DNA from: Scilla litardierei
Lineage: Eukaryota; Streptophyta; Magnoliopsida; Asparagales; Asparagaceae
DNA: 64,000 bases
Direction: 5' to 3'
Assembly (NCBI GenBank): GCA_030789695.1
Contig: CM061142.1
Span: 46,503,987-46,567,986, forward strand
Part shown: in pieces, positions 7,414 to 58,241 of the stretch
Numbering within the stretch: position 1 is the first letter of the stretch
Layout of the letters: each line of letters begins with the position of its first letter
Program-made: the position numbers and the translations under genes
Notes under the pieces: model-generated
What the model was told of the DNA's origin: nothing
The model's input: only the letters and a program-made list of their open reading frames with translations
Databases searched by the model: none

Positions 7414-7735
7414 AGCTCTACGAGCACAAGCAATCGATAAAGAAGATCAAATATCCTAGCACAAACCCTAGAAGCTAGTACAAACCCTAGAATACCAAAT
7501 GAAATCGAAAAGCACAAACCCTAGGTTAAAACTAGAATCCGAAACCCTAGAATACATAGGAGGAGAAATCGAACCCTAGGGCAAGAAATCGACCTAGGAG
7601 AGGGAGGAATATACCTAGGGGGTGGAGTCGACGGCGGAGGACGGTGGCGATGGCCGGAGATATGGCCGGAGACGACGGAATGCGAAGGGGCTCGACGGGG
7701 GGGTTTGGGGTTTTCGGGCTGGAGCAAAAGAGAAG

Positions 7736-21284: not shown

Positions 21285-21343
21285 CTAAAGATAGATAAGT
21301 TCATATCATGGTACCCAAGGTCATTGGGTCCAAGGGATTAGAC
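21285..21343 (-). other. Gag-pol junction of COP-A: frame change or candidate 59-nt intron
   Basis: The gag frame ends WTWLPKV-TAA and the pol frame opens 50 bases later. On the minus strand CCAAAG|GTCTAATCC...CTATCTTTAG|GTACTCAAGG has GT-AG ends, and removing 59 nt joins the two frames without a stop. COP-B keeps the same ends and the same length (42480-42538). 59 nt is shorter than most plant introns, so frameshifting is an equal or better explanation. Confidence 0.4.
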
Positions 21344-23581: not shown

Positions 23582-23592
23582 AGCTGAGTATC

Positions 23593-23606
23593 TGGCTCTG
23601 ATACCA
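23593..23606 (-). promoter_or_regulatory. COP-A primer-binding site, initiator Met tRNA
   Basis: Minus-strand TGGTATCAGAGCCA, two bases inside the 5' LTR, complementary to the 3' end of plant initiator tRNA-Met. This is the standard primer of copia elements. Confidence 0.95.
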
Positions 23607-23608
23607 AA

Positions 23609-29880: not shown

Positions 29881-31506
29881 TCAAGAGGAAGCGGCAGGAT
29901 CTGCAGCAGCAGCAGGCTCTGCAGGAGAAGTGGTGGTCACAGGAACATCTGGAATGTCAGTGGGGGCGACGGCAGAAGTGGCAATCTCTGGAGCACCAAC
30001 AGTAGTGGCCTCGGGAGCACCAGTCGGAGCATCCACTGCAGGAGCGGTGGCAATAGGTGTGCTCTCGGGGGCACCAGCAGACGAAGCAGCAGCATCATCA
30101 CCAGAAGTGCCCTCAGGGGCACGAGTGGAAACACGACAAAGCTCCTCAATATCCTCCTCATCCAACTCATCCTCGTCAGAAAAAGACGGAGGGACCTCAA
30201 TATCAAGGCGTCGAGCGATACGGCAGAGAATCTCCTCAGAACGAGCCTGACGAGACTCCAAACGACGGATCGAACGAACGACATCGGCAAGAGTGGTAGA
30301 GGGAGCAGCAGAGGCAGAGGCAGAGGCAGATGCTGAAGGTGTCGTCCTCTGAACGTGACGGAGCGCCGCAAGAGACTTCTTGACGGCCGTCGTGTTCAGG
30401 GGAGGACCAAGTGGACGCTCATCTTCACGAAGAAGTGTGACACGGAAGTGTCGAAAAACAAGGGTCAACACGCACGGGAAGGGGATGTGAGCCGATTTCA
30501 TGGTCTTGCGAATACACTCGAAAGAGTCCATCTTATCGAGTATAATGCGAGCCCAGTTAATCGAGCTCCCCATGAAAATAGCGTAGATCAACTTCAGAAA
30601 AGGCTGGGACGGTAGAGATGATGAGCCGTACTTGGGAAGCAAGCACGACTTCAGAATCAAATTAAGGACCCAGGCGTTAGGCTTGAAGGATTTTGAGGGT
30701 ACGCCAATCATGGCGGGAGGAATCTGATGGAAAATCTCAGAAAGGATGGTCTGATCAATGGAAGAAATATCATCTACAGAAATGTCAGAGGGGAGGAGGC
30801 CATACGAGGAGATACCCAAAATCTCTCCTAAGATTTCTGCCGTGAGGACTATAGGAGTCCCCAAAACAGTCGTCTCAATCGAGTGGGTCTCGTCGTACTG
30901 ACCCCGGATCCTATTGGCATAGAATAGTTTGACTAAACGAGGGTAGGGGTGAGGATTCGCCTTAGGATCATATCGAAGGTAATCGATAAGACCCGAAGAC
31001 GACAAAAGATCAGCTAGCCCTATGAAGTCACTAATCTGGACGAAATGCTCCAGAAGCAGCGGGCAATGTTCGATACGGTTGTAAGCCGCGAGACACATAG
31101 GGTCGTCGCGACACAACGAGATATCGACACCGCCTACCGGCATCGGAGCCTTTCCCTTAGGCTTACGGGTAGACGTACGTGGTCGGGAGCTAGACTCAGG
31201 ATGGGTAGGAGGAGTGGCTTCCCTATGAGTCTCAGGCTCGGCTCTATACTCGGAATCGGAATCGGTAGGATTATGGAAAGAGGAGGGAGAGGCAAGCACC
31301 TTGGTCTTGGGCTTAGGCTTGGGCTTGGGCTTGGGTTGAGCACGGGGCTTCGCTTTCGTCGTCCTCTTACGCTTAAGAGGATGCGAAGACGAAGAGGGTT
31401 CGGTAGGTTTTGAATGATGTTTCGGAGGAGGAGGGTCCGAGGGTGGAGAATCTATGGTCATTGGCGAAGGGCCAGAGGGAGTGATCGGGATACGTGTATG
31501 AGCCAT
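29881..31506 (-). CDS. Third ORF of COP-B (541 aa)
   Basis: An intact homologue of the COP-A third ORF. I chose ATG 31506 because MAHTRIPITPSG matches MAKTRIPIASSG of COP-A. The first 110 residues are Pro/Lys-rich (KRKRTTKAKPRAQPKPKPKP). The core keeps GKAPMPVGGVDISLCRDD, LVKLFYANRIRGQYDETHS, FKPNAWVLNLILKSCLLPKY and FRHFRVTLLREDERPLG. The tail is Ala/Thr/Pro-rich and poorly conserved. There is no membrane segment. Core conservation with a divergent tail suggests past selection on the core. Function is unknown; a nuclear role is inferred from the basic N-terminus. Confidence 0.8.
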   Translation of the reverse strand: MAHTRIPITPSGPSPMTIDSPPSDPPPPKHHSKPTEPSSSSHPLKRKRTTKAKPRAQPKPKPKPKPKTKVLASPSSFHNPTDSDSEYRAEPETHREATPPTHPESSSRPRTSTRKPKGKAPMPVGGVDISLCRDDPMCLAAYNRIEHCPLLLEHFVQISDFIGLADLLSSSGLIDYLRYDPKANPHPYPRLVKLFYANRIRGQYDETHSIETTVLGTPIVLTAEILGEILGISSYGLLPSDISVDDISSIDQTILSEIFHQIPPAMIGVPSKSFKPNAWVLNLILKSCLLPKYGSSSLPSQPFLKLIYAIFMGSSINWARIILDKMDSFECIRKTMKSAHIPFPCVLTLVFRHFRVTLLREDERPLGPPLNTTAVKKSLAALRHVQRTTPSASASASASAAPSTTLADVVRSIRRLESRQARSEEILCRIARRLDIEVPPSFSDEDELDEEDIEELCRVSTRAPEGTSGDDAAASSAGAPESTPIATAPAVDAPTGAPEATTVGAPEIATSAVAPTDIPDVPVTTTSPAEPAAAADPAASS

Positions 31507-31847
31507 AAGCACGACACGACACAAGAGATCGGAAACCCTAGCCGAAGTGATATAACCCTAGCCGAAATAGAAACCCTAGCCGAAATAGAATGATACCCTA
31601 ACCCTAAGCACAAGAAACTAACCCTAGACAGGAGATAGGAGAGAGAGAGGGGGGTTTACCCTAGGAGGAGGTCGACGGAAAACGGCCGGAGATGTGGTCG
31701 GAAAACGGCGACGGGAGAGGGAGGAAGACGAAGGGTCGGGGGGTTTTGAGCTGAGAAGGGGTTTTCGATCGACTAAAAGAGATAATAGTCGGTCGAGATG
31801 ACTAAATAAGTCGATTAGAAGCCAAAAGACGCAATTGCCCCCGTCAC

Positions 31848-34250: not shown

Positions 34251-34284
34251 AGTTCAAAGCTACACATAGCCAAAGTTGAGAGCT

Positions 34285-36585
34285 ATGACGAACAACGACT
34301 ACAACGTCTTCAAGAACCGCGATGGAGCTTCTTCAGTTATGGAAGGACTATCCTCCGTCAGGCCTCCTCACTTCAACGGTACCAACTACGGGTACTGGAA
34401 ATGCCGGATGCAAATTTTCCTCCGGAGCGCTTCACTATGGAGAGCCACCATGACGGAGTATGTCGAGCCTTCCGAAGAAGATTTCGCGAAGTGGACTCCC
34501 GCGGAGGTCGCCGCGGAAGTAGCCAATGCCAAGGCAATGAATGCCTTGAATTGTGCGTTGGAGCCCGAGGACTTCAACAAGATATGCACATGTAAGAGTG
34601 CATATCAAATATGGAACCAACTCCTCATATTGCACGAAGGATCGAGTACGGTAAAAGATTCTAAACTCGTCGTTGCTAATAAAGAATTTGAGTTGTTTCA
34701 TATGGAGCAGGGCGAAACCATGAAGGAATATTACGCTCGCTTCGTGGATATATCAAACGACTTGGAAGCTCTTGGGAAGGTCTATACCCAAAAGGAGAAA
34801 GTTGCAAAGATTATCGACGGTCTTCCATCACATTGGGAAAAGCGTACCTACGCCATCGAGGAAGGTAACGACATGAATAAATATACCGTCACACAACTAA
34901 TGGGTACCTTGTTGTCTTACGAGGTACGCAAGGATAGTAAGATCCGAATGAAGGAAAAGATGAAAGCGTACTTGAAGCAAGATGAGCCAAAGAAAAAGAC
35001 GATTGCCTTCAAGGCCGCTCCATCTACCGATGATGAAGAATCGGAAGACGATTTGGACATGGAATCCATTGCCTGTATGGCAAGGAATTTCGATCGATTC
35101 CTCCGAGAAGGTATATCTTTGAATAAATCTAAAGTTAGTTCGACTAATGCTTCTACTCCCGTGTGTTATAAATGCAACAAGCCAGGACACATCAAACCGG
35201 ATTGTCCTCTCTACAAACACAAGGAGAAAGGGAAAGCATCGAAGTACGACAAGTCGAGAAAGTACAAGAAAGGACTTGTTGGCACATTCACCGACTCCGA
35301 AGAGGATTCCTCAAGTGGAGAGTCGGATGATGGAAGAGTGGAGAAAGCAAAACTTTGCTTCATGGCGAATGCGACAAAAGTTCGAAAGTCCTCATTCGAT
35401 GATAGCGAGGATGAAAGCGAGGATGGTAGCGAGGATGGGAGCGGAGAACCTACTATTGATGAAATGAGGTTAGCAAACCAAGAAATTTGGTCTAAATTTA
35501 CTAAATTAGTAGATAGATATAATAAGACCAAAGATGAACTTGTTAGCCTCCAAACCTCTCCTAAGTCTACCATCACCAACAATGACACCATTGTTGAGAC
35601 ACTCGCCAATGAGAAAGCAAGTTTGCTTACTCATAATGGCTTGTTGAGAAATGAGGTGAAGTCCCTCAAATCTCAACTTGAGCATGTTCTTGTTGAGGAT
35701 TCGGATGAACATGTGATAGCGGATTTGACGTCTCAAAACTCAACTTTGAGTATTGAGAATAAGAATCTCAAATCACGTGTTTATGTGCTCACATCGCAAG
35801 TATCCACGTTGGATGCTTCTTTGCATTCTCTCAAAGAGAAGTATGAGTGCATGTTAGGCCGTATCAATGATTTCAATAAAGGTAAGGGCCATTTGGATAA
35901 TAGCCTAAATGACTTACTTCCGGCCAAACACCACATTGGCTTGGGGTATAAGATGGGAGACTCATCCAAATCGCCTACCACCTTTGTTAGGCCGACATCC
36001 GATGCCTCGACGAGTGGGAGCAAACACCACATTGGTAGTTCTCCTACCAATAGTGCTTCCACTTCGTACACACCCCCGATTGGAAAGAAACCCACTTTGG
36101 GTAGACCTCCAAAGAGGGGTCATGCATTTTTGTACTCACATGCTATGCCACGTAGGAACACACATCCTACTCCACCGGTGCATGCTATTAATGATTTTTA
36201 TGCTCCGCACCCACGAGCACGTGCAAACACTCATATGAGACACCCACATGCACGTAATCATGCTCATGCACATCCTCATGCTTATGTTCAAACATCTCAT
36301 CCACATGTGCATGCATACTCTCATAATCATCCTCATGCATACACACATCATAATGCTATTGCTAGACCTCATGCTCCTAGGCCACATGCACCACATAGAA
36401 ATCAACCTTTTGTGCATGCAACTACTAGGAAGAGGATTCCCAAAATGTACACTATTTGGGGTCCCAAGAACACTAGCGATGATGCTATGAATGTTTATGT
36501 GAAATCATATATTAATGATGTTATTTTGAATGATGATTATGTTGGGAAGTCAAGTTCCTCTTGGACTTGGTTGCCGAAGGGTTAG
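34285..36585 (+). CDS. COP-C Gag (766 aa)
   Basis: An intact Sirevirus-type Gag. ATG 34285 (MTNNDYNVFKNRDGASS) is the natural start; an upstream in-frame TTG is unlikely. It has the Gag core FNGTNYGYWKCRMQIFLRSA, zinc knuckle CYKCNKPGHIKPDC, acidic linker (DDSEDESEDGSEDGSGE) and a long coiled coil. The C-terminal region is extremely His-rich (HPHARNHAHAHPHAYVQTSH and on). It is the only protein of this element. A clean ORF in a young, mobile, pol-less element suggests that its Gag is useful for its own packaging. Confidence 0.93.
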   Translation: MTNNDYNVFKNRDGASSVMEGLSSVRPPHFNGTNYGYWKCRMQIFLRSASLWRATMTEYVEPSEEDFAKWTPAEVAAEVANAKAMNALNCALEPEDFNKICTCKSAYQIWNQLLILHEGSSTVKDSKLVVANKEFELFHMEQGETMKEYYARFVDISNDLEALGKVYTQKEKVAKIIDGLPSHWEKRTYAIEEGNDMNKYTVTQLMGTLLSYEVRKDSKIRMKEKMKAYLKQDEPKKKTIAFKAAPSTDDEESEDDLDMESIACMARNFDRFLREGISLNKSKVSSTNASTPVCYKCNKPGHIKPDCPLYKHKEKGKASKYDKSRKYKKGLVGTFTDSEEDSSSGESDDGRVEKAKLCFMANATKVRKSSFDDSEDESEDGSEDGSGEPTIDEMRLANQEIWSKFTKLVDRYNKTKDELVSLQTSPKSTITNNDTIVETLANEKASLLTHNGLLRNEVKSLKSQLEHVLVEDSDEHVIADLTSQNSTLSIENKNLKSRVYVLTSQVSTLDASLHSLKEKYECMLGRINDFNKGKGHLDNSLNDLLPAKHHIGLGYKMGDSSKSPTTFVRPTSDASTSGSKHHIGSSPTNSASTSYTPPIGKKPTLGRPPKRGHAFLYSHAMPRRNTHPTPPVHAINDFYAPHPRARANTHMRHPHARNHAHAHPHAYVQTSHPHVHAYSHNHPHAYTHHNAIARPHAPRPHAPHRNQPFVHATTRKRIPKMYTIWGPKNTSDDAMNVYVKSYINDVILNDDYVGKSSSSWTWLPKG

Positions 36586-44806: not shown

Positions 44807-46388
44807 TGTAATGCCCTGCTAAGCTACTGCACAAGTACTAGAGGGGGGTGAATAGTACTTTAAAATAATTAAGGGGCTAATTCCTAATTACTTGCAAACT
44901 CTACCAAACAATGCGGAAAATGCGGAAATGTAAATGTTAGACAACAAAGAAAACAATCGCAAACAACGATATTACTGGGTTCGGATCCACCCAAGTCTCC
45001 CCGACTTGTTCCCGGTGATCCTACGTCCCAACCACCCGGATCCCCTCCGGATACTTGAGTTAGAAACCCTAACTCAAGATTTCCACGATGAAATACTTGT
45101 GAAAAACCTTCACAAGTCAAATCATACACAAAGTAATTTATCACTCCCACAACCCGGGATCACAACCACACTCTCACAACCGAGAGTGAAACTTACAATA
45201 AGAATTGAAATGAAATAAGAAACTTCTTACCGACAAAATACCTATGCCTTGAGTAATGCTTACGAATTAGGGCAAGGATGATTTTGAGGAAGAAGAAGTG
45301 GCACCAAACCCCAGCTCCAAGATGTAGATCAGCGATGGAGAGCTATGGGGATGTTGGTGACCTAGAATCAAGCACTTGGCTTGGAAGGCTTCACACTCAA
45401 TGAATCTCTCTTTGGAAGTAAGAGTGGGGAGAGATTATTGAATGGAATGAAAGAGCTTTGAATGAGCTTGAAATGATTTCTCTTGATCTCTAAACTTGCA
45501 ATAATATCAGCCTTGACTGCAATGAATGCAGCCCATCAAGTATATATAGGTTAGAGGAGAGAGAGAAAGAAAAACGTTTCAATTAATGCTCCAACGGCTC
45601 TTTTCTGAACTCAACTAGTCGGTCAAAGAACAACTACCGACCGACTAGTTCATCAACTAGTCAGTCGGTCAATCAACGTATACCGACTAATGAGTGAACA
45701 GAGAAAAGGTCAAAGCACAGACAAAAGGAACTAGTCGGTCCAAGAAGAGTAGCTGACCGACTAGTTTCACAACTAGTCGGTCAGTTACTCAACTGAGACC
45801 GACTAACAGCTAAAACAGAAGTCTGAGCACAAATTGACTTAGTCGGTCCAAGAACAAATGTTGACCGACTAGTTCATCAACTAGTCGGTCGCTAAATGAG
45901 CATAGACCGACTAACGATAAACAGTAAGTCAAGTGAAAATTGGCATGTACAGTAAAACTCAACTAGTCGGTCCAAGAAGGAAAGTTGACCGACTAGTTCA
46001 TCAACTAGTCGGTCGATCAATGAACACAGACCGACTAATGATAAACAGTAGCTCAGGCTCAAATGTGCATGTACAGGGAAAGCTCAACTAGTCGTTCACA
46101 GAAGCATCACTGACCGACTAGTTCACAAACTAGTCGGTCGGTGAGTCAACTTAGACCGACTAACTGTAAACAATAAAGAGCTTGGAAATGACTGACTGAA
46201 ACTAGTCGGTCCAAGAAGGTTTGCCGACCGACTAGATCACCATCTAGTCGGTCAGTTCTTCTTCTTGAACAAACTAACATGCACAAGAAGTCCCGAATCG
46301 AAGCGCGATGCTTCGGGAAATATTGTATGGACTTCTACTAAGATCCTAGAGCTAAGATATGAGCGTTATGAAGATTTAAACCGTAAGA
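44807..46388 (-). repeat. COP-B right (5') LTR, first part
   Basis: It carries palindrome array 45613-46278, minus-strand TATATATA at 45541-45548 and leader hairpins around 44990-45190. It is interrupted at TAAGA (46384-46388) by ATH-1; the last 291 bp are at 58242-58532. Confidence 0.94.
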
Positions 46389-46750
46389 TGATCGCTCCGG
46401 GATGTGACCCAAAGAACGGTTGTAGTTTTACCGCAAGCGCACGGTATAGCGGCGAGCGGGTTATCGAACACAGGGATGACGAATGACCGTGCTTGTTCCA
46501 ATCAACCTGGCTATTTAAGAAGAGAGAAATTTGCCTTTGGCGATCCTGTCACAATCGTCAGACAAAGTACGGAAATATCAAATCAAATAAAAGCCGTCTA
46601 GGGAATGGGGAATCCCCGCTACTCACCGTATCTCGTCAATGTGGTTCATTGGTATCAAAATTGCTAGGGTAGAGATTCGGATGAACTAGTTGCAACTGAA
46701 TGTAGAACCAAGCTCACGCTCTCGCGCTGTTGCCGGTCTATAGCTATCCA

Positions 46751-47050
46751 AGGTTCGGGTCCAATCTCTTGCAAACCCTAGCCTAGGAAAGCTAGCATTA
46801 GGATCAACATCATCGTTCAATCGCGCCCCGAGCCCACTCTCGTGCAAACTCGGGCCACGACCTAGGTTAGGATAGTTCCTACCCGTCCAATCTCTTGCAA
46901 ACGGGTATCGGCACGGAATTGCAACCGAAAACCCTAATATCGGTCCAATCTCTTGTAAACCGATACTTCGGAAATTCGATTCCAACCCAATTCGGATTTC
47001 TAGGGTTTCCTATCGAATTGGGATCCAATCTCTTGCAAATCCCAATCGAT
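46751..47050 (-). promoter_or_regulatory. Constant-loop hairpin array in ATH-1 leader
   Basis: Five hairpins share one loop while stems differ. Displayed loop CCAATCTCTTGCAA is at 46761-46774, 46887-46900, 47025-47038, with variants at 46835-46848 (CACTCTCGTGCAA type) and 46945-46958 (one change). Flanking stems are GGGT/ACCC, CCCGAG/CTCGGG, TACCCGT/ACGGGTA, TATCGGT/ACCGATA and ATTGGGAT/ATCCCAAT, the last extended by ATCG/CGAT. In element sense the loop is TTGCAAGAGATTGG and begins with the self-complementary TTGCAA. The array is about 390-690 nt downstream of the TATA-like box, so it should be in the RNA leader. The right LTR copy is 56782-57081. Confidence 0.82.
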
Positions 47051-47528
47051 ATGAATACCTAGCCATCAGTAGTAAATCGATCCCAATCTAATCCCTAATA
47101 ACAATTCTAGCACAATTTCTACCAATTCATCACAAATATGAAATAGGGCTTGTAGGGTTCATCCCCACGCCCCAAAACGTGGAGACTACTCACAAATCAT
47201 AGCACAATCACAGAAATAATCAATGAAATAAGCAATAGAATTCATCACAATATTGAGATATGCAATAAAAATAGAATTTTTAGGGGAGAGAGACACAAAC
47301 CAATGGAGTTCTTCAATTAATCCAACAAAAATCACCTTTTGTCTCCTCTCCAATCAAAAGAATAAAGCTAAAAAGTTGATCTAAAAATCTGCAAAAAAAT
47401 CTAAGAAAAGCTCTCTAAACTAGGGTAAAAACAGGGTTTAAATACCCCCAAAAATCGTCCAAAAACTGTGACCAAAATACCCCTGCACAGCCTGTTTTCC
47501 GCAATTTTCGCTACAGGCAGTGCATCGC

Positions 47529-47909
47529 ACTCGGCCGAGTGACAAAAGTCGCTCGGCCGAGTGAGAAACCATGTAATTTTCCAGTAAGTCTCGATCTTCA
47601 GGGGTCTTCACTTCGGGGGCCGCTCGGCCGAGTGAGTTGTCGTCACTCGGCCGATGGCTTCTTGGCACTCGGGCGGTCGGGATTATCCACTCGGCCGAGT
47701 GGGTCTTCTGAAGCTCAGGCAGCCGAAAAACAGTAACATGGCGATTCTTGAATGGCTTCGTCTGGGCGCCACTCGGGCGGATGGGGTCTCGTCACTCGGC
47801 CGATGTGGTTTCCGTCGCTCGGCCGAGTGCACGTATGAATCGTGTCTGTTCTGGTCGGCCGAGAGGTGTCTCGCTGGTCGGCCGAGTGACTCCTTCACTC
47901 GGCCGAGTG
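47529..47909 (-). promoter_or_regulatory. U3 palindrome cluster CACTCGGCCGAGTG (ATH-1 left LTR)
   Basis: About ten full or near-full copies of the 14-bp perfect palindrome CACTCGGCCGAGTG or its core TCGGCCGA, ending about 85 bp upstream of the TATA-like box. The copy in the right LTR is 57559-57940. Confidence 0.85.
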
Positions 47910-48205
47910 AGACACAAAAAATGCCCAGATTGCTTGTTTTGGCCTCCTCGTCGCTCCTGCGACGTCCGTTCTTCTTCCGCTCTTCTCCAACAGCAAAATA
48001 CCCCTCGGGGAGGTCGTCGGTGACACTCTGGAGTAGGCGTATCTCGAGATCACTCCAAATCGCTCCAAATCACCTGAAATGCGACAAAAACAACAAATCG
48101 TGAAAAGTATCGCAATATCGTCGATATATCGTGAAAAACACGATTTGGGCGATCCAAATGGCATGCAAATATGCGTAAAAAAAGGTGTAAAATAAGGAGT
48201 GATCA

Positions 48206-48219
48206 AAATCCCCCAAGCT
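48206..48219 (-). promoter_or_regulatory. ATH-1 polypurine tract
   Basis: Minus-strand AAGCTTGGGGGATTT directly before the 3' LTR start TGATCACTCC. AGCTTGGGGGA recurs at about 48808-48819 and 49815-49826. Confidence 0.85.
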
Positions 48220-50173
48220 TACCTCTGACTCGTCCTCGAGGAAGTAAGTAAAAGGCGAACCCGGTGGATTCGGAAAACGAAAACGGCGAAAAATGGAAAA
48301 AAATGAAAAACGGAGAAGAATGGAAAAACGAAATAAAAATAAAAATAAAGAAGAAAGAAAGAAGCGAAGAGGTAAGCTGCTAGATCATTTTCTCAGGACG
48401 TGGGTTTCACTTACTCATATAGCATGCACCGAATGAAAAACACATGTCAAAGAGTTTTATTTTGATATCATAGTATAATAGTGCAAATAGAAATAGAAAA
48501 CCCACGAACAATGATATAATCATGAAAAACGGAATATTTTTATAATTAACATCGTCTGAATCATCTAAAGCGGTATACAAATCACAGATTGCACACTTTT
48601 CAATTGAATGCTTTCTATCGGGAGTATAAGAGTATCACACAATAGAATAGGGAGAATAGAAAAGTATGGATTTCATGAAATGAACGCTAGGCTTAGATTT
48701 CTGGATTTCGTAAAGCTAGAAATAATCTTACCGAGTATAGAATATTACTTAGCCTAGGTTGTCGTGCAATGTCGAGTAGTCACTCTCTCACACATCAATG
48801 GATTCTCTCCCCCAAGCTTATCTATAAGCGTGGTGGCATAAAAAAATATTTACATCCACATTTCTATAAAGCTCCCAAAGTAAATGAAAATAAACACGAA
48901 AAGAGAGAAGAAGGGAGAAAGTGAGATGGGATCTCTTATTGAGGATTTTTTTCTCTTTTTCTTTTGTTTTTCTCTCTCTTTTTTTTGACATAGCATATAT
49001 TCACAATGGTCCCAACTCAAAGAGATATAATGATTTACGAGAATATTTTCTCTCTTTTTTTTCTTGGGAATTTTGGAGCTAGGAATTAGTAGCGGGGGAA
49101 ATGCCATATAATAGAATCGCTAAGGGGAGATTCACCAATGATTTTAAAATAGAGAAATGATGTTCAAGATTTTGTGGAGAAAGAAATAAATATATCTCTC
49201 GGTTCACTCTATAAGACATGCACGACAACTTCAGCAGGGTAATTTAATCTACTCAGTTTCGATCACAAAAAAGCTAACTAATCCAGATTTATCATAGCTA
49301 ACATCATTCAATCATCCTGAAGTGAAATGTACAAATCATGCATATAGAAGTGATATAGGAAAAGAAATCGGTACTCCAGACATAGGCATTCAATGCGTGA
49401 ATCTTGGTGTGTTCTCTGTGATAGCATACATATGAATATTCAGACTCAGCTAATAATAAAACTTCATCCATTTTCATGTGGAAAAGTGTGGGTTACTATT
49501 CCTAAATGCAAGGCAATGTCATAGCATATGATATCAGAAACAAAATCTAAGACATGACAAATATAGCATGCATGTAGAGAAAGCTAATGCCACGTAATCA
49601 TCATCACAGAAAAGTCATCTCTAGCATGAGATGAAAAAGAAATAAAGATAAAAGGAAAAATAAAACTATTTACAATGCGGCACACAAAGAAAATAAGGAA
49701 AACGTGATGCATGGTAAAATAAAAGAAAAATGATGAAAATAAGTGCAAAAGGGAAAAAATGGGGTGAAAAACTAAAAACAAAGGTGACAAATCGAAAAAA
49801 ACGTGAGAACTCACTCCCCCAAGCTAAATGGCACAGTGTCCTCAATGTGCAAAGTGTGGCACACCGAGAGACAAGTAATGGGAGGGGCAAGTGAGGATGC
49901 ATGCATGATGAAAAATAAAGAAAATGCAAGAAAAAAAAGAAAAAATAATAAAGGAAAATATGATGCGGACATGATGCATGCAAATAAAAGGAGTGAGACG
50001 GATATAAGGATGTGACACCAAAAACTCTCCCTCTCTCCCAAAAAGATATAAATAGATACGATCAGAATGAGAATCCCAAAATAAGTGAGGGGAGGGGGGT
50101 GGACAAAAATGCATCAGGACCCAGCAGAAACGGGCAGCACAACGGCAAAAATAGTCGATGGCATCAAGGGTGC
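48220..50173 (-). other. ATH-1 3' untranslated region
   Basis: About 2 kb of A/T-rich sequence between the third ORF and the polypurine tract, with two further AGCTTGGGGGAG copies on the minus strand. I see no conserved coding region; the frames here are low-complexity Phe/Ser/Leu or Lys-rich and differ in no way from chance. Confidence 0.75.
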
Positions 50174-52267
50174 CTAAGAAGGTGGGAATGCATCGTCTCT
50201 GTCTTGAGGCGGAGGAGGAGGAGGTGGTGGTGGTGGTGGCTGCTGAGCTGGGGTGGGTGTGGGAGTGGAGACAGGCTGAGTGTGTGTGGGGGTGTGGGTG
50301 GGAACCTGCCGGGTGGGTACGGGCTGGGTGGGTACGGGTACGCGGGGGAGACGCTCTAGGACCTGGGTAAGACAGTAGTGAATCTGTGGGAGCAGGTCAA
50401 AGCGGCCAGCCATCATGGAGACGGTGGTGGAAAGGGTCCTAAGGTCGCCTCTGAGGCCACTCACCGCCACCTCAAGAGCACGAATGCTCTGAAGTACAGT
50501 GTCGGGGGGCGGTGGTGCAGAGGGACAAACCGGTCTGTGCTGTGCGGGTCGTGGCTGGCGAACTCGGGTCGCGTAGGTGATGGGCTCAGCAGGGAAGGGA
50601 ACGAAAGGTGCTACGCCCGCAAATGTGGGCCTGGCCTCAGTGTGAGGCCGGGGCACTGGCTGGTGAGAAGTGGAGGCAGCAGCAACGAAAGAAGAATACA
50701 AAAGAGGCAGCGAGGCGGCCAGAGAGGTCAATGGCACAGAAGTGTGGACAGACGCCACGACACTCTCGGAAAATACAGCAGTAGTGGAGACAGAGGGCTC
50801 TCCGCACTCAACTACGGTCGGCGGGCGCTCGGGTGGGGCAGAAGAAACAGGCTCAGCAGAAAGAGGGCCAGTGGTGATGGTGACAGCCTCGGAAGCAGTG
50901 GAGGTGGGCTCAGCTAAGGTACTCCCGACACCGTCAGAGGTGTCAGGAGCAGCAGAAGTATCAGGGGTAGGCTGAGGGGCCACGGGGTCAACAGGGGCAG
51001 CAGGCTCGGCAGGGTGTGCAACAGGGTCTGCAGGAGCAGCCTGGGCAGCGTGGGCAGCGTGGGCCTGCTCAGCCTCCTCGGCCTCGAGCACGTAGGCAGC
51101 TGGGATAAGAACATCCATCGTAGGGAGCCAGTCTACCTGGGCCGGTGCAATCTGAGTCCGAGCTGGGCTCGGAAGAATCATGTAATCGGCCCCGTAAGGG
51201 CCGTGCAACCAGACCCAGTGACGCTCACCGTGCAGACGAAGCATCTTCATCCGGGCCATAACATCAATCGACAGAGAAGTGGGGCTCGGTGCTCGTCACA
51301 GGTCGTCAGGAAAGTCCTCGCCGGTCATAAGGGCAAGCAAGGTGATCAGGCCGCCGCAGCATATCAGTGAGCGAGCGCCCACCGATACAATGATGCAGTC
51401 CAAAAACCAAGCCGCAACATCAATCACAACGGCGGGGACAAGCTCATCGCCATCCCTAGATAGAGCTCTGGGCCGTGTCATCGCGTAGAGCATGTAGAGC
51501 TCCGGCGTCGACATCGTGCCCGGCTCATATCTGGCCAAAAAGGTCGTCGCCATAAGGCGCTGAGCTATACAGAGGTAGGGGTGGACAATGGCCGAGGCCT
51601 TGTCCCTACTAGGGTCAAAGGCAGCGTGAAGACCCGTAATCCGGGCCCAGAAGGCACCGGCGTCGAAGGAAGGTGGGGGGATATGGGTGGGGGCGTAACC
51701 TCGGTCGGCCCCGGGGACGTCGGGCCACGAGAAGAAAGCTCTCATCATACCGAGAGTGACCTGGCACTCCCGGTCCATGAACCGAAACGAGCATCCCTCG
51801 TCGGTCCGGGCGATCAAACTAAGCACCTCAAGTGTCGGGCGGGTAAACGTGTCCGCCGACACCTGAAAGAAATCTCGCCAGCCCACGTTGTCGTACAACG
51901 TGAGCATCCCCTCGAGTACCCCCAGGCGTCCTAGGTCAGCGAGGTGTGCAAACCTGGAGGGTACGATCGAGCGCTGGGAGATACGCTCGAAGACGGCGCG
52001 GTGTGCGTCGTCTCGGAACGTAATCCCGAGCGGCCCGACCAGTGGAGCCGGAGGTGGTGGCTGTGCAGCGGCAGGGAGCGGCTGTGCGGGCTGTGGGTGC
52101 GCTGCAGGCTGTGCGGGGTGTGCGGGGCCTGCAGGCTGTGCTGGGTGGATGGGGTGTGCGGGAGAAGGAGGAGGAGAGTCCTCCACCTCGTGGGAGGGGC
52201 CGGGCTCGTCCGGCCGCTTCCTCTTGGCGGAAGCTCTTCTCGACCTCGGCCGTGTCCGGGGCGGCAT
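50174..52267 (-). pseudogene. ATH-1 third ORF (Athila ORF-1 type), one in-frame TGA
   Basis: ATG 52267 begins MPPRTRPRSRRASAKRKRPD, a strongly basic, nuclear-targeting-like start. A Pro/Ala/Gln linker follows, then the conserved core PLGITFRDDAHRAVFERISQ, FRFMDRECQVTLGMMRAFF, HPYLCIAQRLMATTFLARY and STPELYMLYAMTRPRAL. From memory this matches the ATHILA ORF-1 family. TGA at 51296 ends the first 323 residues. The frame then stays open to 50174 (MKMLRLHGERHWVWLHGP, then a Pro/Ala-rich tail), so the intact form would be near 700 residues. No membrane segment is evident. A GTG 27 codons upstream is not a likely start. Confidence 0.8.
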
Positions 52268-52814
52268 ATCGGCCCCGAGCGCGCGCCGAAAAACGTGAAA
52301 AGTGCGGCGTGTGCAAAATAATGGAAGGAGTATACCCCGACACGCCACGAGTGCAAAATAATGGAAGCGTGCGAAGACAGCGCCTCTGCGAAGCCCGAAT
52401 CAGTCCCTAGAAGCTCCCTGGGGCTCCCCTAAGCTCCCAAAAACAACCTGCGCATGAAATGAAGATATCAGCGGGTAATATTCAAAACGTATGGAGAATT
52501 AGGGGTATAATAGATAGATATAGAAATTAATTTGGGTTTGGGGTTCGTTTAATACATGGATCCTCGAAAAATACACAAAAAGAGGAGAAAAAGGCGAAAT
52601 AAGCGATACCGGAGGTGGCCTGAGACACGGCGGCCGGCGGCGACTCGGGCGAAGCGCGGCGGTTGCTCGGCCGGCGGTGGCTGGCCGAGCGCCGGCGCTG
52701 CGGTGGTCGGCCGGGCGAGTGAGGGCGCGAGCGAGCGAGGGTCAGGCGAGGGAGCTGAGAGGTCTGGCGCGATTTGGGTTTTTGCGTTTCGAAAAACGTG
52801 CCCCCCTCGGCTCC

Positions 52815-53180
52815 TATATAATAAAAGTTACGACTCGGCCGAGTGGCTATGTCACTCGGCCGAGCGATATCAATGGAAAATTCCTCCTCGCTTACGCTTC
52901 GGCCGAGTGGCCTTGCCAGCCTCGGCCGAGTGGAGTAAGTCCATTCGGCCGAGTGGCTTAAGCTACTCGGCAAGACTCGCCCTAGGAGCGTATCCGTTTT
53001 ACTCGGCCGAGTGAATTTATATACTCGGCCGAGTGGCAATTATACTGAAATCAGGAAAATAAACAGAGAGTTGGGTACAGCAGACTTCCCTCGTTCGTGA
53101 GCGGCTCGGCCGGACGAACTTGTGTACTCGGCTGAGTGACTAGTGTACTCGGCCGAGTGACTAGTATACTCGGCCAAGTG
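52815..53180 (-). promoter_or_regulatory. Internal promoter candidate upstream of ATH-1 third ORF
   Basis: About eleven full or partial CACTCGGCCGAGTG palindromes (52833-53180) are followed on the minus strand by TATTATATAGG (52814-52824), about 10 bases after the last palindrome. The ATG at 52267 lies about 550 bases downstream. The same palindrome is in the LTR U3, also just before a TATA-like box. I infer separate transcription of the third ORF. 53181-53508 holds nothing recognisable, and 52268-52814 is a GC-rich leader. Confidence 0.7.
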
Positions 53181-53508
53181 AGCCTTGTATTCTGCTGTTT
53201 GTCTTCGTTTTGGCTCTAAACTCCGTCTTTCTTCCTCCAGTTGATTTCATCTTACTCCTAAGCATCGAGCGTCTTCCTGGGGCGTTCCTCGTCGTCTCGT
53301 TCATCCTCCTCATGATGGATTTACCTATCTCCTCTCCTGTCAAGAAAAATCGGACCCGTTATCACAAAATTTTTGGACGAACGACTCAAAACACTAAAAA
53401 TTTCTAAAACAAAAATAAAGAAAAAGTAAAAATAAAGCAATAACCGTCGGGTTGCCTCCCGACAAGCGCTTGTTTAAGGTCGTGAGCTCGACCCCCTATA
53501 ATTTTCAA

Positions 53509-54331
53509 TCAATGCGGGATGTTTGGTGCATATGAGATGCACCCATAAAACTTTCCGGGGAGAACGCTTGGATTCGAAAGTTGCGGCGGCGTGTTCTCCC
53601 TCGGTGGTCTCCCATCTCGAATAGTGTTGGGGGGAGGCTCTCCCAAGCTAGCATTTGCCCCGGTCAACGGCTTTACCGGTGATGCCGATCTCCGTGCCGG
53701 CGGAGCTTTCTTCGGAGACTTTAATTTCGAGAGCTTGCAGAGCTCTCGAATCCTTGCGACATCAGTGTCGCCTTCATTATCTTCAGCGGAGAAGTCGGGT
53801 GAATCATTTGTCTTCTCTTCTTGGCCTAAATCCGGGCCTTCCTCGAAATCCTCATCAAATAGAGCACCAATCGAGTGGGGGATCGCCTCCTCAATTACCT
53901 CATCAAGGAGGTCCATGTAGTCAAGCTCCTCGTGGTAAGGCATGTGCTTCATAGCCTTTGGAATGTGAAGCTCCACCTCGATGTTTCCGACGTTCAAAGT
54001 TAGGGTACCTTCTCGCACGTCGACGATCACACCGGCGGTGGCGAGGAACGGGCGTCCGAGTATCAATGAAGTATCTCCCTCCTCCTTAACGTCCATGATC
54101 ACGAAATCACATGGCAAGCATATTCCCCCCCGGGACTTGAAGCGGGATATCTTCGGCGATCCCTACCGGCCTTGTTATTCGCCAATCGGCCAACTGTATC
54201 CTCATGTCGGTAGGTTTCAACTTCGTCCCGGTGTTTAGCCTTAAGAACATGGAGAGAGGCATTAGGCTTACACTAGCCCCTAAATCCACCAACGCCTTTT
54301 GGAGAGGGACGCCGCCCAAGGTGCAAGGAAT
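53509..54331 (-). pseudogene. ATH-1 protease, frameshifted
   Basis: Athila retropepsin in two frames. 54331-54107 encodes the active-site part (VPLQKALVDLGASVSLMPLS), and 54117-53509 the C-terminal part (PCDFVIMDVKEE, SLILGRPFLATAGVIVDV) followed by an acidic tail. The frame changes in a run of seven C (54125-54131), so it may be a real indel or a base-call error. The tail ends CISYAPNIPH at 53509 and no RT follows. Confidence 0.87.
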
Positions 54332-56281
54332 TCAAAAACTCCCCGGATCTTTGAATTTGGCCGGCTCTTTTTCTCTCTTGGTAAACCAAGAGCCCTCCTC
54401 GGCTAGCATGATCTTTTCCTTCCTCTTTTTCCCCGAAATCAAATCCTTTAAAAATTTAGCATATGTGGGGATTTCCACGATGGCGTCGAGGAAAGGAATG
54501 TTGAGGCTAACTCCCCTCAGATACTCGAGAAACTTTGCTAGTCTTTTCTCCATTTTCGCTCTAGCGAGCCTTTGGGGGAATGGGACCGGCGGCATGAAGC
54601 GCCTCTCCTCCATCAATTGCTCCGCTCTAGATTTCTCCTTCTCTTGCGGCTCTTTTTCCTTCTCAACTTCAACTACCGGCTCAATTGGCTCTAAACTTTC
54701 CTCCACGGGCTCCTCGGTAGGAATCATGGCGGGGGTGGTGTCCTTCCCGCCTCTAGTAGTGACGGCAACCACGGCATTGATGTGTCCGGTGTTGCCCCGT
54801 GGGTTTTGCTCGGGTTGCGCCGGCAAATGTTGAGTGTTCCGATTGAGCAAAGCCAATTGTTCCGATACTTGAGCCACAACGGTTGTAAGGGAGTCTTGCC
54901 CCGCTTTTAAGGTAGCATTGACCTTCTTTTGCTCAACCATAAACGCCTCCACTATAGCTTCGAAGTCGGATTGTTGTTGAGCTTGTGGAGGGTTTTGATT
55001 TTGATTTCTCCACCCTTGGTTGTATCCGGGCGGCCTATAAGGTGGAACGTGTTTCTTCGGTTGGAAATTTTGTTGTGGAGGCCCCCTCGGCGGATAGTAT
55101 TGTTGTTGGGGTGGTGGTGGTCGAGCTTGTTGAGGTGGTTGTTGTGGCGGGTTCAAAGCTCCTTCATTGTTGGCGTAAGAGAAACCGGGATGGTTTCTTG
55201 TGGCCGGATTGGCCCAATACCCTTGGTTCCCCGTAACATATTGTACTTGCTCCAAGGATCCTTCTCCTTGCTCTCCTCCCGAGTACATGGCTTGAGATTG
55301 GTCTTGCCAATCACTCATTTGGTTCGTCGGTGCGGAGGTTGAAGGGGTTCCTTGGGGCTCCGTGATAAACTTCTCCAATCTCTCCTCTACCTTGTGGAGA
55401 GAATCAAACTTGCTTGTGAGCTCCGCTACGGCCTTCGCCTCATAGATACTAGTCGGCTTCAAGGAGGACGTAGAGTGTCCTCGCTCATCGCCCCATTGTT
55501 GATTATTGGAGGCCATCTCCTCGATTAGGGCCGTAGCTTCTTCGGGAGTCTTTGACAAAATAGCACCATTTGCCGCGGCATCAATAATTTGCTTGGTCCC
55601 TGGTTGGAGACCATTGTAGAAGCTATGAACTAGCTCCCAATCTTCAATGCTATGGTGCGGGCATTGATGCTGTAGATCCTTAAATCGCTCCCAAGCCTCA
55701 TAAAGCATCTCTTGGGGTCCTCGCTTGAAGGACATAAGAGCGCTCCGGATCTTCACCGTCTTGGAGGGCGGATAGAATTTGTCAATGAATGCATCCGCCA
55801 ACCCGTCCCAAGAGGTAAAGACTCCATCAGCTTGCGTCCTCAACCAATAGAGTGCCTTGTCTTTTAGCATGAAGGGGAAGAGGCGCAGTCTGATGGCATC
55901 AATGGGGACCCCCGGCATCTGAAATGTGGCGCACTTCGACAAGAATAGTTGAATGTGGTAGTGGGGGTTCTCATGGGCGTTCCCATGAAATGGGTCTTGT
56001 TGCATCAGAACCACTAATCCAGTCTTCAGCTCAAAGTTCTTGTCAGCCGCCAACTCCGGAACGGCAATGGATGAGGTCGTAGAAGAGGTCTTAGGCCGGA
56101 GCCTATCACGAATAGAAATTATCCTTGTCATTCTTGCCGCTAATTGTTCCGCATTTTCCGGGTTGGTCATAAACCTCCCTTCCCGATCTTGTCTCCTCTC
56201 CGCTCTAATTCTCCTCGCGGTACGCTCGATCTCGGGATCAAATAATATAGCTTCAGGGTCCGTCGTAGATCTCGTGTGCAT
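54332..56281 (-). CDS. ATH-1 Gag (649 aa)
   Basis: ATG 56281 (MHTRSTTDPEAIL). The Athila Gag core is visible: DPFHGNAHENPHYHIQLFLS, AIRLRLFPFMLKDKALYWLR, FIDKFYPPSKTVKIRSALMS and LVHSFYNGLQPGTKQIIDAA. A Gln/Pro-rich stretch and a charged C-terminal region follow. I see no CCHC knuckle. The ORF is intact. It ends with TGA after KFKDPGSF, and the protease continues in the same frame directly after this stop. Confidence 0.92.
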   Translation of the reverse strand: MHTRSTTDPEAILFDPEIERTARRIRAERRQDREGRFMTNPENAEQLAARMTRIISIRDRLRPKTSSTTSSIAVPELAADKNFELKTGLVVLMQQDPFHGNAHENPHYHIQLFLSKCATFQMPGVPIDAIRLRLFPFMLKDKALYWLRTQADGVFTSWDGLADAFIDKFYPPSKTVKIRSALMSFKRGPQEMLYEAWERFKDLQHQCPHHSIEDWELVHSFYNGLQPGTKQIIDAAANGAILSKTPEEATALIEEMASNNQQWGDERGHSTSSLKPTSIYEAKAVAELTSKFDSLHKVEERLEKFITEPQGTPSTSAPTNQMSDWQDQSQAMYSGGEQGEGSLEQVQYVTGNQGYWANPATRNHPGFSYANNEGALNPPQQPPQQARPPPPQQQYYPPRGPPQQNFQPKKHVPPYRPPGYNQGWRNQNQNPPQAQQQSDFEAIVEAFMVEQKKVNATLKAGQDSLTTVVAQVSEQLALLNRNTQHLPAQPEQNPRGNTGHINAVVAVTTRGGKDTTPAMIPTEEPVEESLEPIEPVVEVEKEKEPQEKEKSRAEQLMEERRFMPPVPFPQRLARAKMEKRLAKFLEYLRGVSLNIPFLDAIVEIPTYAKFLKDLISGKKRKEKIMLAEEGSWFTKREKEPAKFKDPGSF

Positions 56282-56395
56282 GCAATGAGAAAACAGAGTT
56301 TCAAAGAAATGGTTAGCACGATGGAAGGGTTAGGTAAGGAAATAAAAAAATAAAAAGAAAGAAATAGCTAGGATGGTAGATCAAACGCAATCGCC

Positions 56396-56413
56396 TCCCT
56401 GGCAACGGCGCCA
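56396..56413 (-). promoter_or_regulatory. ATH-1 primer-binding site, tRNA-Asp
   Basis: Minus-strand TGGCGCCGTTGCCAGGGA, six bases inside the 5' LTR. It matches the plant tRNA-Asp 3' end with one mismatch; tRNA-Asp is the usual primer of Athila elements. Confidence 0.93.
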
Positions 56414-56419
56414 AAAACT

Positions 56420-58236
56420 TGATCGCTCTGGGATGTGACCCAAAGAACGGTTGTAGTTTTACCGCAAGCGCACGGTATGGCGGCGAGCGGGTTATCGAAC
56501 ACAGGGAGGACGAATGACCGTGCTTGTTCCAATCAACCTGGCTATTAAAGAAGAGAGAAATTTGTCTTTGGCGATCCTGTCACAATCGTCAGACAAAGTA
56601 CGGAAATATCAAATCAAATAAAAGCCATCTAGGGAATGGGGAATCCCCGCTACTCACCGTATCTCGTCAATGTGGTTCATTGGTATCAAAATTACTAAGG
56701 TAGAGATTCGGATGAACTAGTTGCAACTGAATGTAGAACCAAGCTCACGCTCTCGCGCTGTTGCCGGTCTATAGCTATCCTAGGTTCGGGTCCAATCTCT
56801 TGCAAACCCTAGCCTAGGGAAGCTAGCATTAGGATCAACATCATCGTTCAATCGCGCCCCGAGTCCACTCTCGTGCAAACTCGGGCCACGACCTAGGTTG
56901 GGATAGTTCCTACCCGTCCAATCTCTTGCAAACGGGTATCGGCACGGAATTGCAACCGAAAACCCTAATATCGGTCCAATCTCTTGCAAACCGATACTTC
57001 GAAAATTCGATTCCAACCCAATTCGGATTTCTAGGGTTTCCTATCGAATTGGGATCCAATCTCTTGCAAATCCCAATCGATATGAATACCTAGCCATCCG
57101 TAGTAAATCGATCCCAATCTAATCCCTAATAACAATTCTAGCACAATTTCTACCAATTCATCACAAATATGAAATTGGGCTTGTAGGGTTCATCCCCACG
57201 CCCCAAGACGTGGAGACTACTCACAAATCATAGCACAATCACAGAAATAATCAATGAAATAAGCAATAGAATTCATCACAATATTGAGATATGCAATAAA
57301 AATAGAATTTTTAGGGGAGAGAGACACAAACCAATGGAGTTCTTCAATTAATCCAACAAAAATCACCTTTTGTCTCCTCTCCAATCAAAATAATAAAGCT
57401 AAAAAGTTGATCTAAAAATCTGCAAAAAAATCTAAGAAAAGCTCTCTAAACTAGGGTAAAAACAGGGTTTAAATACCCCCAAAAATCGTCCAAAAACTGT
57501 GACCAAAATACCCCTGCACAGCCTGTTTTCCGCAATTTTCGCTACAGGCAGCGCATTGCACTCGGCCGAGTGACAAAAGTCGCTCGGCCGAGTGAGAAAC
57601 CATGTAATTTTCCAGTAAGTCTCGATCTTCAGGGGTCTTCACTTCGGGGGCCGCTCGGCCGAGTGAGTTGTCGTCACTCGGCCGATGGCTTCTTGGCACT
57701 CGGGCGGTCGGGATTATCCACTCGGCCGAGTGGGTCTTCTGAAGCTCAGGCAGCCGAAAAACAGTAACATGGCGATTCTTGAATGGCTTCGTCTGGGCGC
57801 CACTCGGGCGGATGGGGTCTCGTCACTCGGCCGATGTGGTATCCGTCGCTCGGCCGAGTGCACGTATGAATCGTGTCTGTTCTGGTCGGCCGAGCGGTGT
57901 CTCGCTGGTCGGCCGAGTGACTCCTTCACTCGGCCGAGTGAGACACAAAAAATGCCCAGATTGCTTGTTTTGGCCTCCTCGTCTCTCCTGCGACGTCCGT
58001 TCTTCTTCCGCTCTTCTCCAACAGCAAAATACCCCTCGGGGAGGTCGTCGGTGACACTCTGGAGTAGGCGTATCTCGAGATCACTCCAAATCGCTCTAAA
58101 TCACCTGAAATGCGACAAAAACAACAAATCGTGAAAAGTATCGCAATATCGTCGATATATCGTGAAAAACACGATTTGGGCGATCCAAATGGCATGCAAA
58201 TATGCGTTTAAAAAGGTGTAAAATAAGAAGTGATCA
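56420..58236 (-). repeat. ATH-1 right (5') LTR
   Basis: 1817 bp, the same length as the left LTR. It has palindromes 57559-57940, minus-strand TATTTAAA at 57468-57475 and hairpin array 56782-57081. The first hairpin has a longer outer stem here (CTAGG/CCTAG) and the second has an extra pair (CCGAGT/ACTCGG) compared with the left LTR. Confidence 0.95.
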
Positions 58237-58241
58237 TAAGA

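What the first reader, a model, noticed from the sequence alone, without database searches (positions are those of the whole stretch)
46751..47050. ATH-1 leader: five hairpins with one constant loop and different stems
The loop (element sense TTGCAAGAGATTGG, with two variants) recurs five times. Each copy is enclosed by a different perfectly complementary stem: GGGT, CCCGAG, TACCCGT, TATCGGT, ATTGGGAT in displayed sense. Constant loop with covarying stems is a strong sign of selected RNA structure. The loop starts with self-complementary TTGCAA, as in kissing-loop dimerisation signals of retroviruses. Five in a row in the 5' leader could promote RNA dimerisation, Gag binding or phase-like clustering of element RNA. 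I know of no description of such an array in plant retrotransposons.
Basis: partly seen in the sequence, partly recalled or inferred. Interest (0 to 1): 0.88.

Follow-up and report, generated by a model that had tools for sequence, protein, structure and literature searches.

The report
Five-hairpin packaging tag in Athila elements
An abundant jumping gene, by its kind a plant one, carries, in a stretch predicted to start its RNA, five predicted hairpins whose stems differ while the tip stays nearly the same, and they likely let one element's shell protein package the RNA of relatives that lack shell or copying genes.

Summary
The array sits in both LTRs of an Athila-type Ty3/gypsy element (5' LTR 56420-58236, 3' LTR 46389-48205, minus strand). 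The genome (3.68 Gb) holds 167,774 exact copies of the 14-base core, against 5 for the reversed pattern. Of 84 arrays scanned, 75 have exactly five hairpins. In 39 pooled hairpins 96% of cells pair, against 75% shuffled and about 50% slid by one base. One-sided changes on internal tree branches give G·U 16 times and A·C once, pointing to the sense RNA.

The 'loop' is predicted to be a small hairpin: UG bulge, three pairs, GAGA tetraloop. Its top pair is A-U or C-G (single mismatches only 247 and 304 genome-wide). The C-G form breaks the TTGCAA palindrome, so kissing dimerisation is not the general rule.

The array is shared by elements with gag-protease but no reverse transcriptase (the window copy), elements with reverse transcriptase-integrase but no gag, and elements with neither. 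I infer a repeated Gag-binding packaging signal that lets these partners share particles. Gag binding and the transcription start are untested.

The parts
46736..47063 (-). hairpin array, 3' LTR copy (the finding)
   Evidence: aligned in A1
56767..57094 (-). hairpin array, 5' LTR copy, the one predicted to lie in the RNA leader
   Evidence: fold z-score -6.2
57047..57078 (-). hairpin 1 (5' LTR); 47016-47047 in the 3' LTR
   Evidence: R1, 46.5 bits each
56967..56998 (-). hairpin 2 (5' LTR); 46936-46967 in the 3' LTR (core TTACAAGAGATTGG)
   Evidence: R1, 47.5 and 39.4 bits
56909..56940 (-). hairpin 3 (5' LTR); 46878-46909 in the 3' LTR
   Evidence: R1, 45.5 bits each
56856..56887 (-). hairpin 4 (5' LTR) with the C-G inner pair, core TTGCACGAGAGTGG; 46825-46856 in the 3' LTR
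   Evidence: R1, 44.6 and 43.6 bits
56783..56814 (-). hairpin 5 (5' LTR); 46752-46783 in the 3' LTR
   Evidence: R1, 43.7 bits each
56420..58236 (-). 5' LTR, TG...CA, 1817 bp
   Evidence: 98.5% identical to the 3' LTR; sequence
46389..48205 (-). 3' LTR
58237..58241 (.). target-site duplication TCTTA; partner at 46384-46388
   Evidence: identical 5-mers
57467..57475 (-). TATA-like box TATTTAAAC, 406 nt before the core of hairpin 1; start of transcription guessed near 57443
   Evidence: inferred, no RNA data
56394..56413 (-). primer binding site TGGCGCCGTTGCC..., 392 nt from the start of the hairpin 5 core
   Evidence: complementarity to tRNA-Asp recalled
54335..56329 (-). gag open frame (665 codons, stop to stop)
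   Evidence: PF03732, E 5e-18
51299..52399 (-). part of the ATHILA ORF
   Evidence: PF03078, E 1.6e-7

Best explanation
The array is five predicted hairpins with one nearly constant tip and covarying stems, predicted to lie in the leader of Athila retrotransposon RNA, and it likely works as a repeated Gag-binding packaging signal shared by elements that depend on each other's proteins. Shown: the array, covarying outer stems, a compensated inner pair, an excess of G·U over A·C on internal branches, conserved number, order and spacing, and presence in gag-bearing, pol-bearing and protein-poor elements. Predicted: transcription starts about 30 nt after a TATA-like box 361-409 nt before the core of hairpin 1 (box seen in 17 of 34 loci), so the array lies in R/U5 before the primer binding site; each tip folds as a UG bulge, three pairs and a GAGA tetraloop. 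Inferred: Gag from gag elements binds the bulged GAGA tips, five sites raise avidity, and RNAs of gag-less elements with the same array enter the same particles. Any stem that pairs would present the tip, which would explain why the stems differ.
For: Pooled hairpins (39 from 8 arrays, 30 distinct): 96.1% of cells paired against 74.5% shuffled (0 of 500 as high), 68 double-change cells against 19.5 (0 of 500); slid by one base 49-52%. Arrays (33 of 34 then in hand): 95.3% against 90.9%, 93 against 35.1 double-change cells; 20 of 106 RNAalifold pairs compensated. Inner pair genome-wide: A..T 167,774; both sides changed 35,241, and of the places listed (first ones, contig C1) all but four read C..G, those four T..G; single C..T 247, single A..G 304. 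Tree events on outer pairs (75 of 84 arrays): internal branches 31 kept and 6 lost, tips 55 and 43, Fisher p 0.0027; one-sided changes on internal branches G·U 16, A·C 1, other 3; tips 39, 20, 19. The array block stays alignable between A and B LTRs (72-79%), as do the LTR ends and part of U3, while four B interiors share only about the last 60 nt with the window element in blastn. Coding types: gag-protease without RT in five of five interiors read, pol without gag in two of two, neither in four of four; arrays flank all of them. Array clades and coding types are mixed, as recombination between co-packaged RNAs would give. Precedent, from passages read: BARE2, which lacks Gag, is packaged in BARE1 particles (PMC3735527).
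Against: No binding, packaging or expression data. Transcription start and R/U5 borders are inferred; two loci that reach far enough (L016, L036) show none of the three TATA forms sought. The antisense strand folds as well for its composition (z -7.07 against -6.20). Hairpin 5 is unpaired at outer position 5 in 16 of 33 and at position 7 in 19 of 33 arrays, hairpin 2 at positions 6 and 7 in 11 and 15. Slid by -1, the internal-versus-tip test also gives p 0.005 (16/2 against 27/27); slid by +1, -2 and +2 it does not (p 0.38, 0.71, 0.63), so that test alone is weak, and tips lean to G·U too. Two of five measures do not clearly beat shuffles: pairs with a double change 13 against 10.5 (35 of 500) and further types 42 against 42.7 (377 of 500) for the arrays; 7 against 6.3 (212 of 500) and 23 against 19.9 (28 of 500) for the pooled hairpins. 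For the C-G variant the program slightly prefers another tip fold (-17.6 against -17.2). The A-U/C-G switches may partly be conversion between hairpins. The array is not the only shared non-coding block: the first 450 nt of the LTR align at 72-76%. One genome only.
Confidence: 0.5

Rival explanations
1. The array is a repeated binding site for a host protein, for nuclear export of unspliced RNA or for translation of gag from a long leader, not for Gag.
For: The predicted leader is about 1.1 kb with ten AUGs before the gag frame. Structured RNA export elements exist in mouse LTR elements (passages of PMC12786077).
Against: Elements without gag, or with no recognised protein at all, keep the array; a gag-translation element would not be needed there. 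An export role fits them as well as packaging does.
Confidence: 0.25
2. The hairpins are kissing-loop dimerisation signals through the palindrome UUGCAA.
For: TTGCAA is intact in hairpins 1, 2, 3 and 5 of most copies (36, 34, 36 and 32 of 39).
Against: Three of the six bases are predicted to pair inside the tip. A6 to C goes with U11 to G, not with U1 to G (103 of 104 keep T1). Hairpin 4 lacks the palindrome in 34 of the 39 arrays, 8 of the 39 having been found through the changed pair.
Confidence: 0.1
3. The conserved unit is DNA: a palindromic protein-binding site or cruciform in the LTR.
For: The same LTR has ten CGGCCG palindromes upstream of the TATA-like box, and LTRs of Sireviruses have palindromic motifs there (passages of PMC2829016). 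The antisense strand folds as well.
Against: On internal branches one-sided changes are G·U 16 and A·C 1, which DNA does not explain; the array is downstream of the box; stems differ between hairpins while the core is nearly fixed.
Confidence: 0.07
4. The array is no longer functional and persists because the family copied itself massively from a few sources.
For: Tip branches lose pairing freely (55 kept, 43 lost), as dead copies would.
Against: Internal branches keep it (31 and 6), and array groups down to 70% identity keep five hairpins with changed stems.
Confidence: 0.08

Closest known systems
Retroviral packaging (Psi) hairpins
   Same: Several hairpins in the leader upstream of gag (recalled); for MMTV the title names a purine loop and the PBS as critical for packaging by Gag (title and abstract start of PMC8096270 in the listings).
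   Different: Here one tip is repeated five times on different stems inside the LTR, about 390 nt before the PBS; Gag binding is untested.
Dispersed packaging signals of HBV and small RNA viruses
   Same: Many stem-loops with one loop motif; for HBV core protein the motif is RGAG (abstract start of PMC7612645 in the listing), close to GAGA.
   Different: Here clustered in one 330-nt array, in an LTR retrotransposon.
BARE1/BARE2 of barley
   Same: A gag-less element whose RNA is packaged by a partner; the paper speaks of conserved dimerisation and packaging signals (passages of PMC3735527).
   Different: Ty1/copia; no repeated hairpin array in the passages read ('loop' and 'palindrom' do not occur in its main text); here gag and pol are on different elements.
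Sirevirus LTR palindromes
   Same: Arrays of inverted repeats in plant LTRs (passages of PMC2829016, and PMC10760457).
   Different: Those lie upstream of the TATA box and conserve the stem (CGG-CCG; CACCGGACNNNGTCCGGTG). Here the tip is conserved and the stems vary.
TR-GAG non-autonomous elements
   Same: LTR elements that carry gag but no pol and can transpose (passages of PMC8704663).
   Different: Here an ATHILA ORF is also present and pol elements without gag share the array.

Membership tests
Athila (Ty3/gypsy LTR retrotransposon) | two LTRs with TG...CA ends and a 5-bp target duplication | tested here: met
   TCTTA on both sides
Athila (Ty3/gypsy LTR retrotransposon) | gag and ATHILA ORF | tested here: met
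   PF03732 and PF03078
Athila (Ty3/gypsy LTR retrotransposon) | reverse transcriptase and integrase in the element | tested here: not met
   no RT in the window copy by tblastn with two gypsy RTs and none in the six open frames scanned; RT and integrase are present in related elements L119 and L120 (RT, RNase H, integrase zinc domain in both; integrase core in L120). The copy is a non-autonomous relative.
Athila (Ty3/gypsy LTR retrotransposon) | primer binding site for tRNA-Asp | tested here: inconclusive
   TGGCGCCGTTGCC found after the LTR; the match to tRNA-Asp is recalled
Retroviral kissing-loop dimerisation signal | self-complementary hexamer exposed in the loop and conserved | tested here: not met
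   half of it is predicted to pair inside the tip; hairpin 4 lacks it in 34 of 39; hairpins 1-3 and 5 mostly keep it, so the test fails for the array as a whole, not for each hairpin
Retroviral-type packaging signal | structured RNA in the leader before gag | tested here: inconclusive
   covariation met; leader position rests on a TATA-like box seen in 17 of 34 loci
Retroviral-type packaging signal | kept by elements that lack their own Gag | tested here: met
   arrays flank gag-less pol elements L119 and L120 and protein-poor elements L071-L074
Retroviral-type packaging signal | specific binding by Gag and enrichment in particles | not testable with these tools
   needs protein and RNA experiments
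Sirevirus palindromic repeated motifs | conserved CGG-CCG stem upstream of the TATA box | tested here: not met
   array lies downstream of the TATA-like box and its stems vary
Known Rfam families | match at the curated score | tested here: not met
   window 46300-48300, E up to 5: five matches, best E 0.42 and 21.9 bits, all far below their gathering scores

The most novel reading that the evidence does not exclude
The array is the common packaging ticket of a split retrotransposon: one Athila element encodes Gag and protease, a second encodes reverse transcriptase and integrase, others encode neither, and the five-hairpin array makes them one replicating community whose RNAs are packed together and recombine.
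Probability: 0.35. Interest if true: 0.9.

Novelty: new variant of a known kind. Interest (0 to 1): 0.78.

Why it matters
Packaging signals of plant LTR retrotransposons are little known, although these elements make up much of plant genomes. This array gives a compact, repeated and conserved candidate with a clear prediction for its protein partner. It also offers a way to ask how elements that lack gag or pol keep spreading. With 167,774 exact core copies in one genome, it may be among the most abundant selected RNA structures in a plant genome (inference).

Tried and rejected
Kissing loops through TTGCAA: rejected as the general rule. DNA palindrome only: disfavoured by G·U against A·C. Complementarity of the core to another part of the element: no 9-mer found in the window copy. 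A similar core in another LTR family (TTGCAAGTAATTAG at 27115 and 44884): no matching stem seen around it. Rfam: nothing at gathering score. Phage records by blastn, and viral contigs and prokaryote genomes by a pattern of two exact cores 30-60 bases apart: no match, as expected for a plant element. A poly(A) signal that would divide R from U5: no AATAAA in the 5' LTR, so left open. My first branch count was biased because loci L078-L117 were chosen for a mismatch in the inner pair; I repeated it without that pair. Literature: ten searches of the PMC library; no title or abstract start in the lists shown describes a constant-tip hairpin array in a plant LTR leader. Lists were capped and subscription papers are mostly not in that library.

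Not obtained: counts for changes of the second inner pair, a genome search with gag, and 12 further arrays of pol-type elements; the genome server did not answer.

Full report
What was checked. They lie in the 3' LTR (46389-48205) of an element on the minus strand whose 5' LTR is 56420-58236, 98.5% identical, with the duplicated target TCTTA on both sides. The 5' LTR has its own array (56767-57094). The interior has gag (PF03732) and an ATHILA ORF (PF03078), so this is an Athila-type Ty3/gypsy element, and the genome by that is a plant's (the record is unnamed). It is nested in another element's LTR.

How common it is. The genome has 3.68 Gb in 7,266 contigs. The exact 14-base core occurs 84,400 times forward and 83,374 times reverse, against 1 and 4 for the pattern read backwards. 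I fetched 32 arrays from the first 2.2 Mb of contig C1 and 40 more from C1-C8, these 40 chosen because one hairpin had a single mismatch in the inner pair. With ten further loci (found through the changed inner pair) and the two window LTRs, 84 arrays were scanned: 75 have exactly five hairpins, 6 have a sixth match (the four of these that were printed are weak) and 3 have four. Spacing is nearly constant (about 80, 58, 53, 73).

What the tip is. The 14 bases are not an open loop in the predicted fold. Read in sense, UUG-CAA-GAGA-UUG-G folds as three pairs closed by a GAGA tetraloop (GNRA type, recalled), with a two-base UG bulge and a U·G pair below. For hairpin 1 this is worth -11.6 against -8.3 kcal/mol with the loop open; for the C-G variant -17.2 against -12.3, though another tip fold scores -17.6. 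The strongest support is the top inner pair. A..T gives 167,774 copies. The pattern with both sides changed gives 35,241 (control 53); of the places listed, which are only the first ones on C1, all but four read C..G and those four T..G. Single changes give 247 (C..T) and 304 (A..G). These are counts of copies, not of events; on the tree I infer six A-U/C-G switches, three each in hairpins 4 and 5, some of which could be conversion between hairpins.

Stems. Across copies the outer stems covary, for example hairpin 2 CG 18/UA 15, hairpin 3 CG 18/UA 13 and CG 20/UA 13, hairpin 4 CG 16/UA 16 (33 of 34 arrays then in hand). For the array 95.3% of cells pair against 90.9% shuffled and 50-51% slid by one; double-change cells 93 against 35.1. 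Two of the five measures do not clearly exceed shuffles (pairs with a double change, 35 of 500 shuffles as high; further pair types, 377 of 500). Pooling 39 single hairpins from 8 arrays (30 distinct), 96.1% against 74.5%; 7 of 11 pairs change on both sides, but 212 of 500 shuffles do so too, and further pair types 23 against 19.9 (28 of 500). RNAalifold gives 106 pairs, 20 with compensation, and extends hairpins 1, 2 and 4.

Which strand and when. On a tree built from the spacers only (75 of 84 arrays), outer-pair changes on internal branches keep pairing 31 times and lose it 6 times; on tip branches 55 and 43 (Fisher p 0.0027). This is what selection in active lineages and decay after insertion would give. 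The slid controls are not all flat: slid by -1 the same contrast gives 16/2 against 27/27, p 0.005; slid by +1, -2 and +2 p is 0.38, 0.71 and 0.63. One-sided changes on internal branches give G·U 16, A·C 1, other 3; on tips 39, 20, 19. G·U pairs only in the sense RNA, so the sense RNA is the likely target; tips lean the same way, less strongly. Folding energy does not decide the strand, since both strands fold well (z -6.20 and -7.07).

Position. A TATA-like box lies 361 to 409 nt before the core of hairpin 1 in 17 of 34 loci, with members from all four array groups; most of the other 17 begin too close to the array, but L016 and L036 reach far enough and show none of the three forms sought. 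The primer binding site was found in 17 of 34, 384 to 432 nt from the start of the hairpin 5 core. With a start about 30 nt after the box (rule recalled), the array falls in R or U5 of the leader. No RNA data were available.

Who carries it. The first 34 arrays form groups A, B, C and D, with L016 (counted with B) apart at a 12% cut, down to 70% identity. Between the window's A-type LTR and seven B-group copies, the array block aligns at 75-79% in four; in three the alignment runs on beyond it at 72-73%. The first 450 nt or so of the LTR (72-76%, in most) and the last 100 (about 81-85%) also align, while much of U3 in between does not. The interiors of four short elements (L071-L074) share only about the last 60 nt with the window element in blastn, and no Pfam family was found in the open frames scanned. 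The window copy, L075-L077 and L118 carry gag-protease relatives but no reverse transcriptase by tblastn with two gypsy enzymes; the one faint hit, in L076, has E 0.055-0.085. L119 and L120, between array pairs L017/L018 and L030/L031, carry reverse transcriptase, RNase H and integrase domains and of the gag-protease frame only its last 137 residues, so both types look like deletions of one ancestor (inference). A genome search with the reverse transcriptase of L120 scored 150 of 75,670 candidates: all 150 lie in open frames of at most 1,388 codons, most often 1,337 or 1,338, too short for a gag-pol fusion in one frame. That list holds only the nearest relatives of L120, and I did not read what lies upstream of each; a gag in another frame or a more distant complete element is not excluded. 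Of 13 elements with about 1 kb of interior in hand, five begin with gag, three with pol, four with the B-type frame and one with a distant protease-like stretch; 1 kb cannot show whether pol follows gag. Among these, gag occurs with A, B and C arrays, the B-type frame with A and B arrays, pol with A arrays.

How it likely works. The non-coding pieces shared by gag, pol and protein-poor elements are the LTR ends, part of U3, the primer site, the 3' end of the interior and the array. Of these the array is the best candidate for what lets one Gag collect all these RNAs, since it is the structured part predicted to be transcribed. The repeated tip on different stems is the design known from dispersed packaging signals, where HBV uses RGAG in the loop (abstract start of PMC7612645, listing). 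The BARE pair shows that a gag-less plant element can be packaged by a partner (passages of PMC3735527). Gag binding, avidity and co-packaging are inferred; host-protein export or translation roles remain possible.

Verdict. The kissing-loop reading is not supported as a general rule. In a 2025 review of host factors for plant LTR elements the words hairpin, stem-loop and Athila do not occur in the main text (PMC12786077). I rate it a new variant of a known kind, because leader hairpins for packaging are known while a five-fold constant-tip array shared by gag and pol elements was not found in my searches.

Noticed in passing
window 46384-58241; L118-L120, L075-L077: Coding looks split: gag-protease elements without reverse transcriptase (five of five interiors read) and pol elements without gag (two of two) share LTR type, array and the 3' ATHILA ORF; 150 of 150 scored pol matches lie in frames of at most 1,388 codons.
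   Followed up: partly
window 57560-57940 and the same part of the 3' LTR (about 47530-47910): Ten CGGCCG palindromes (CTCGGCCGAG type) in U3 of the 5' LTR upstream of the TATA-like box, like the CGG-CCG repeated motifs of Sireviruses (passages of PMC2829016).
   Followed up: no
window 3053-46388: Copia-type elements with a long gag and zinc knuckle (21341-23617, 34270-36582) and copia reverse transcriptases, Sirevirus-like by recall; the LTR end at 46001-46260 holds repeated CTAGTCGGTC/GACCGACTAG inverted repeats.
   Followed up: partly
L041 (array L009): An A-type array joined to a B-type interior, which looks like recombination between co-packaged RNAs.
   Followed up: partly
L071-L074: The short B-type interior has a frame of up to 442 codons with weak similarity (34-41%) to the N-terminal part of the pol frame, and no Pfam match.
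   Followed up: no
window 5761-7446 and 29884-31557 (minus): Two frames matching PF20167, a putative plant transposon protein.
   Followed up: no
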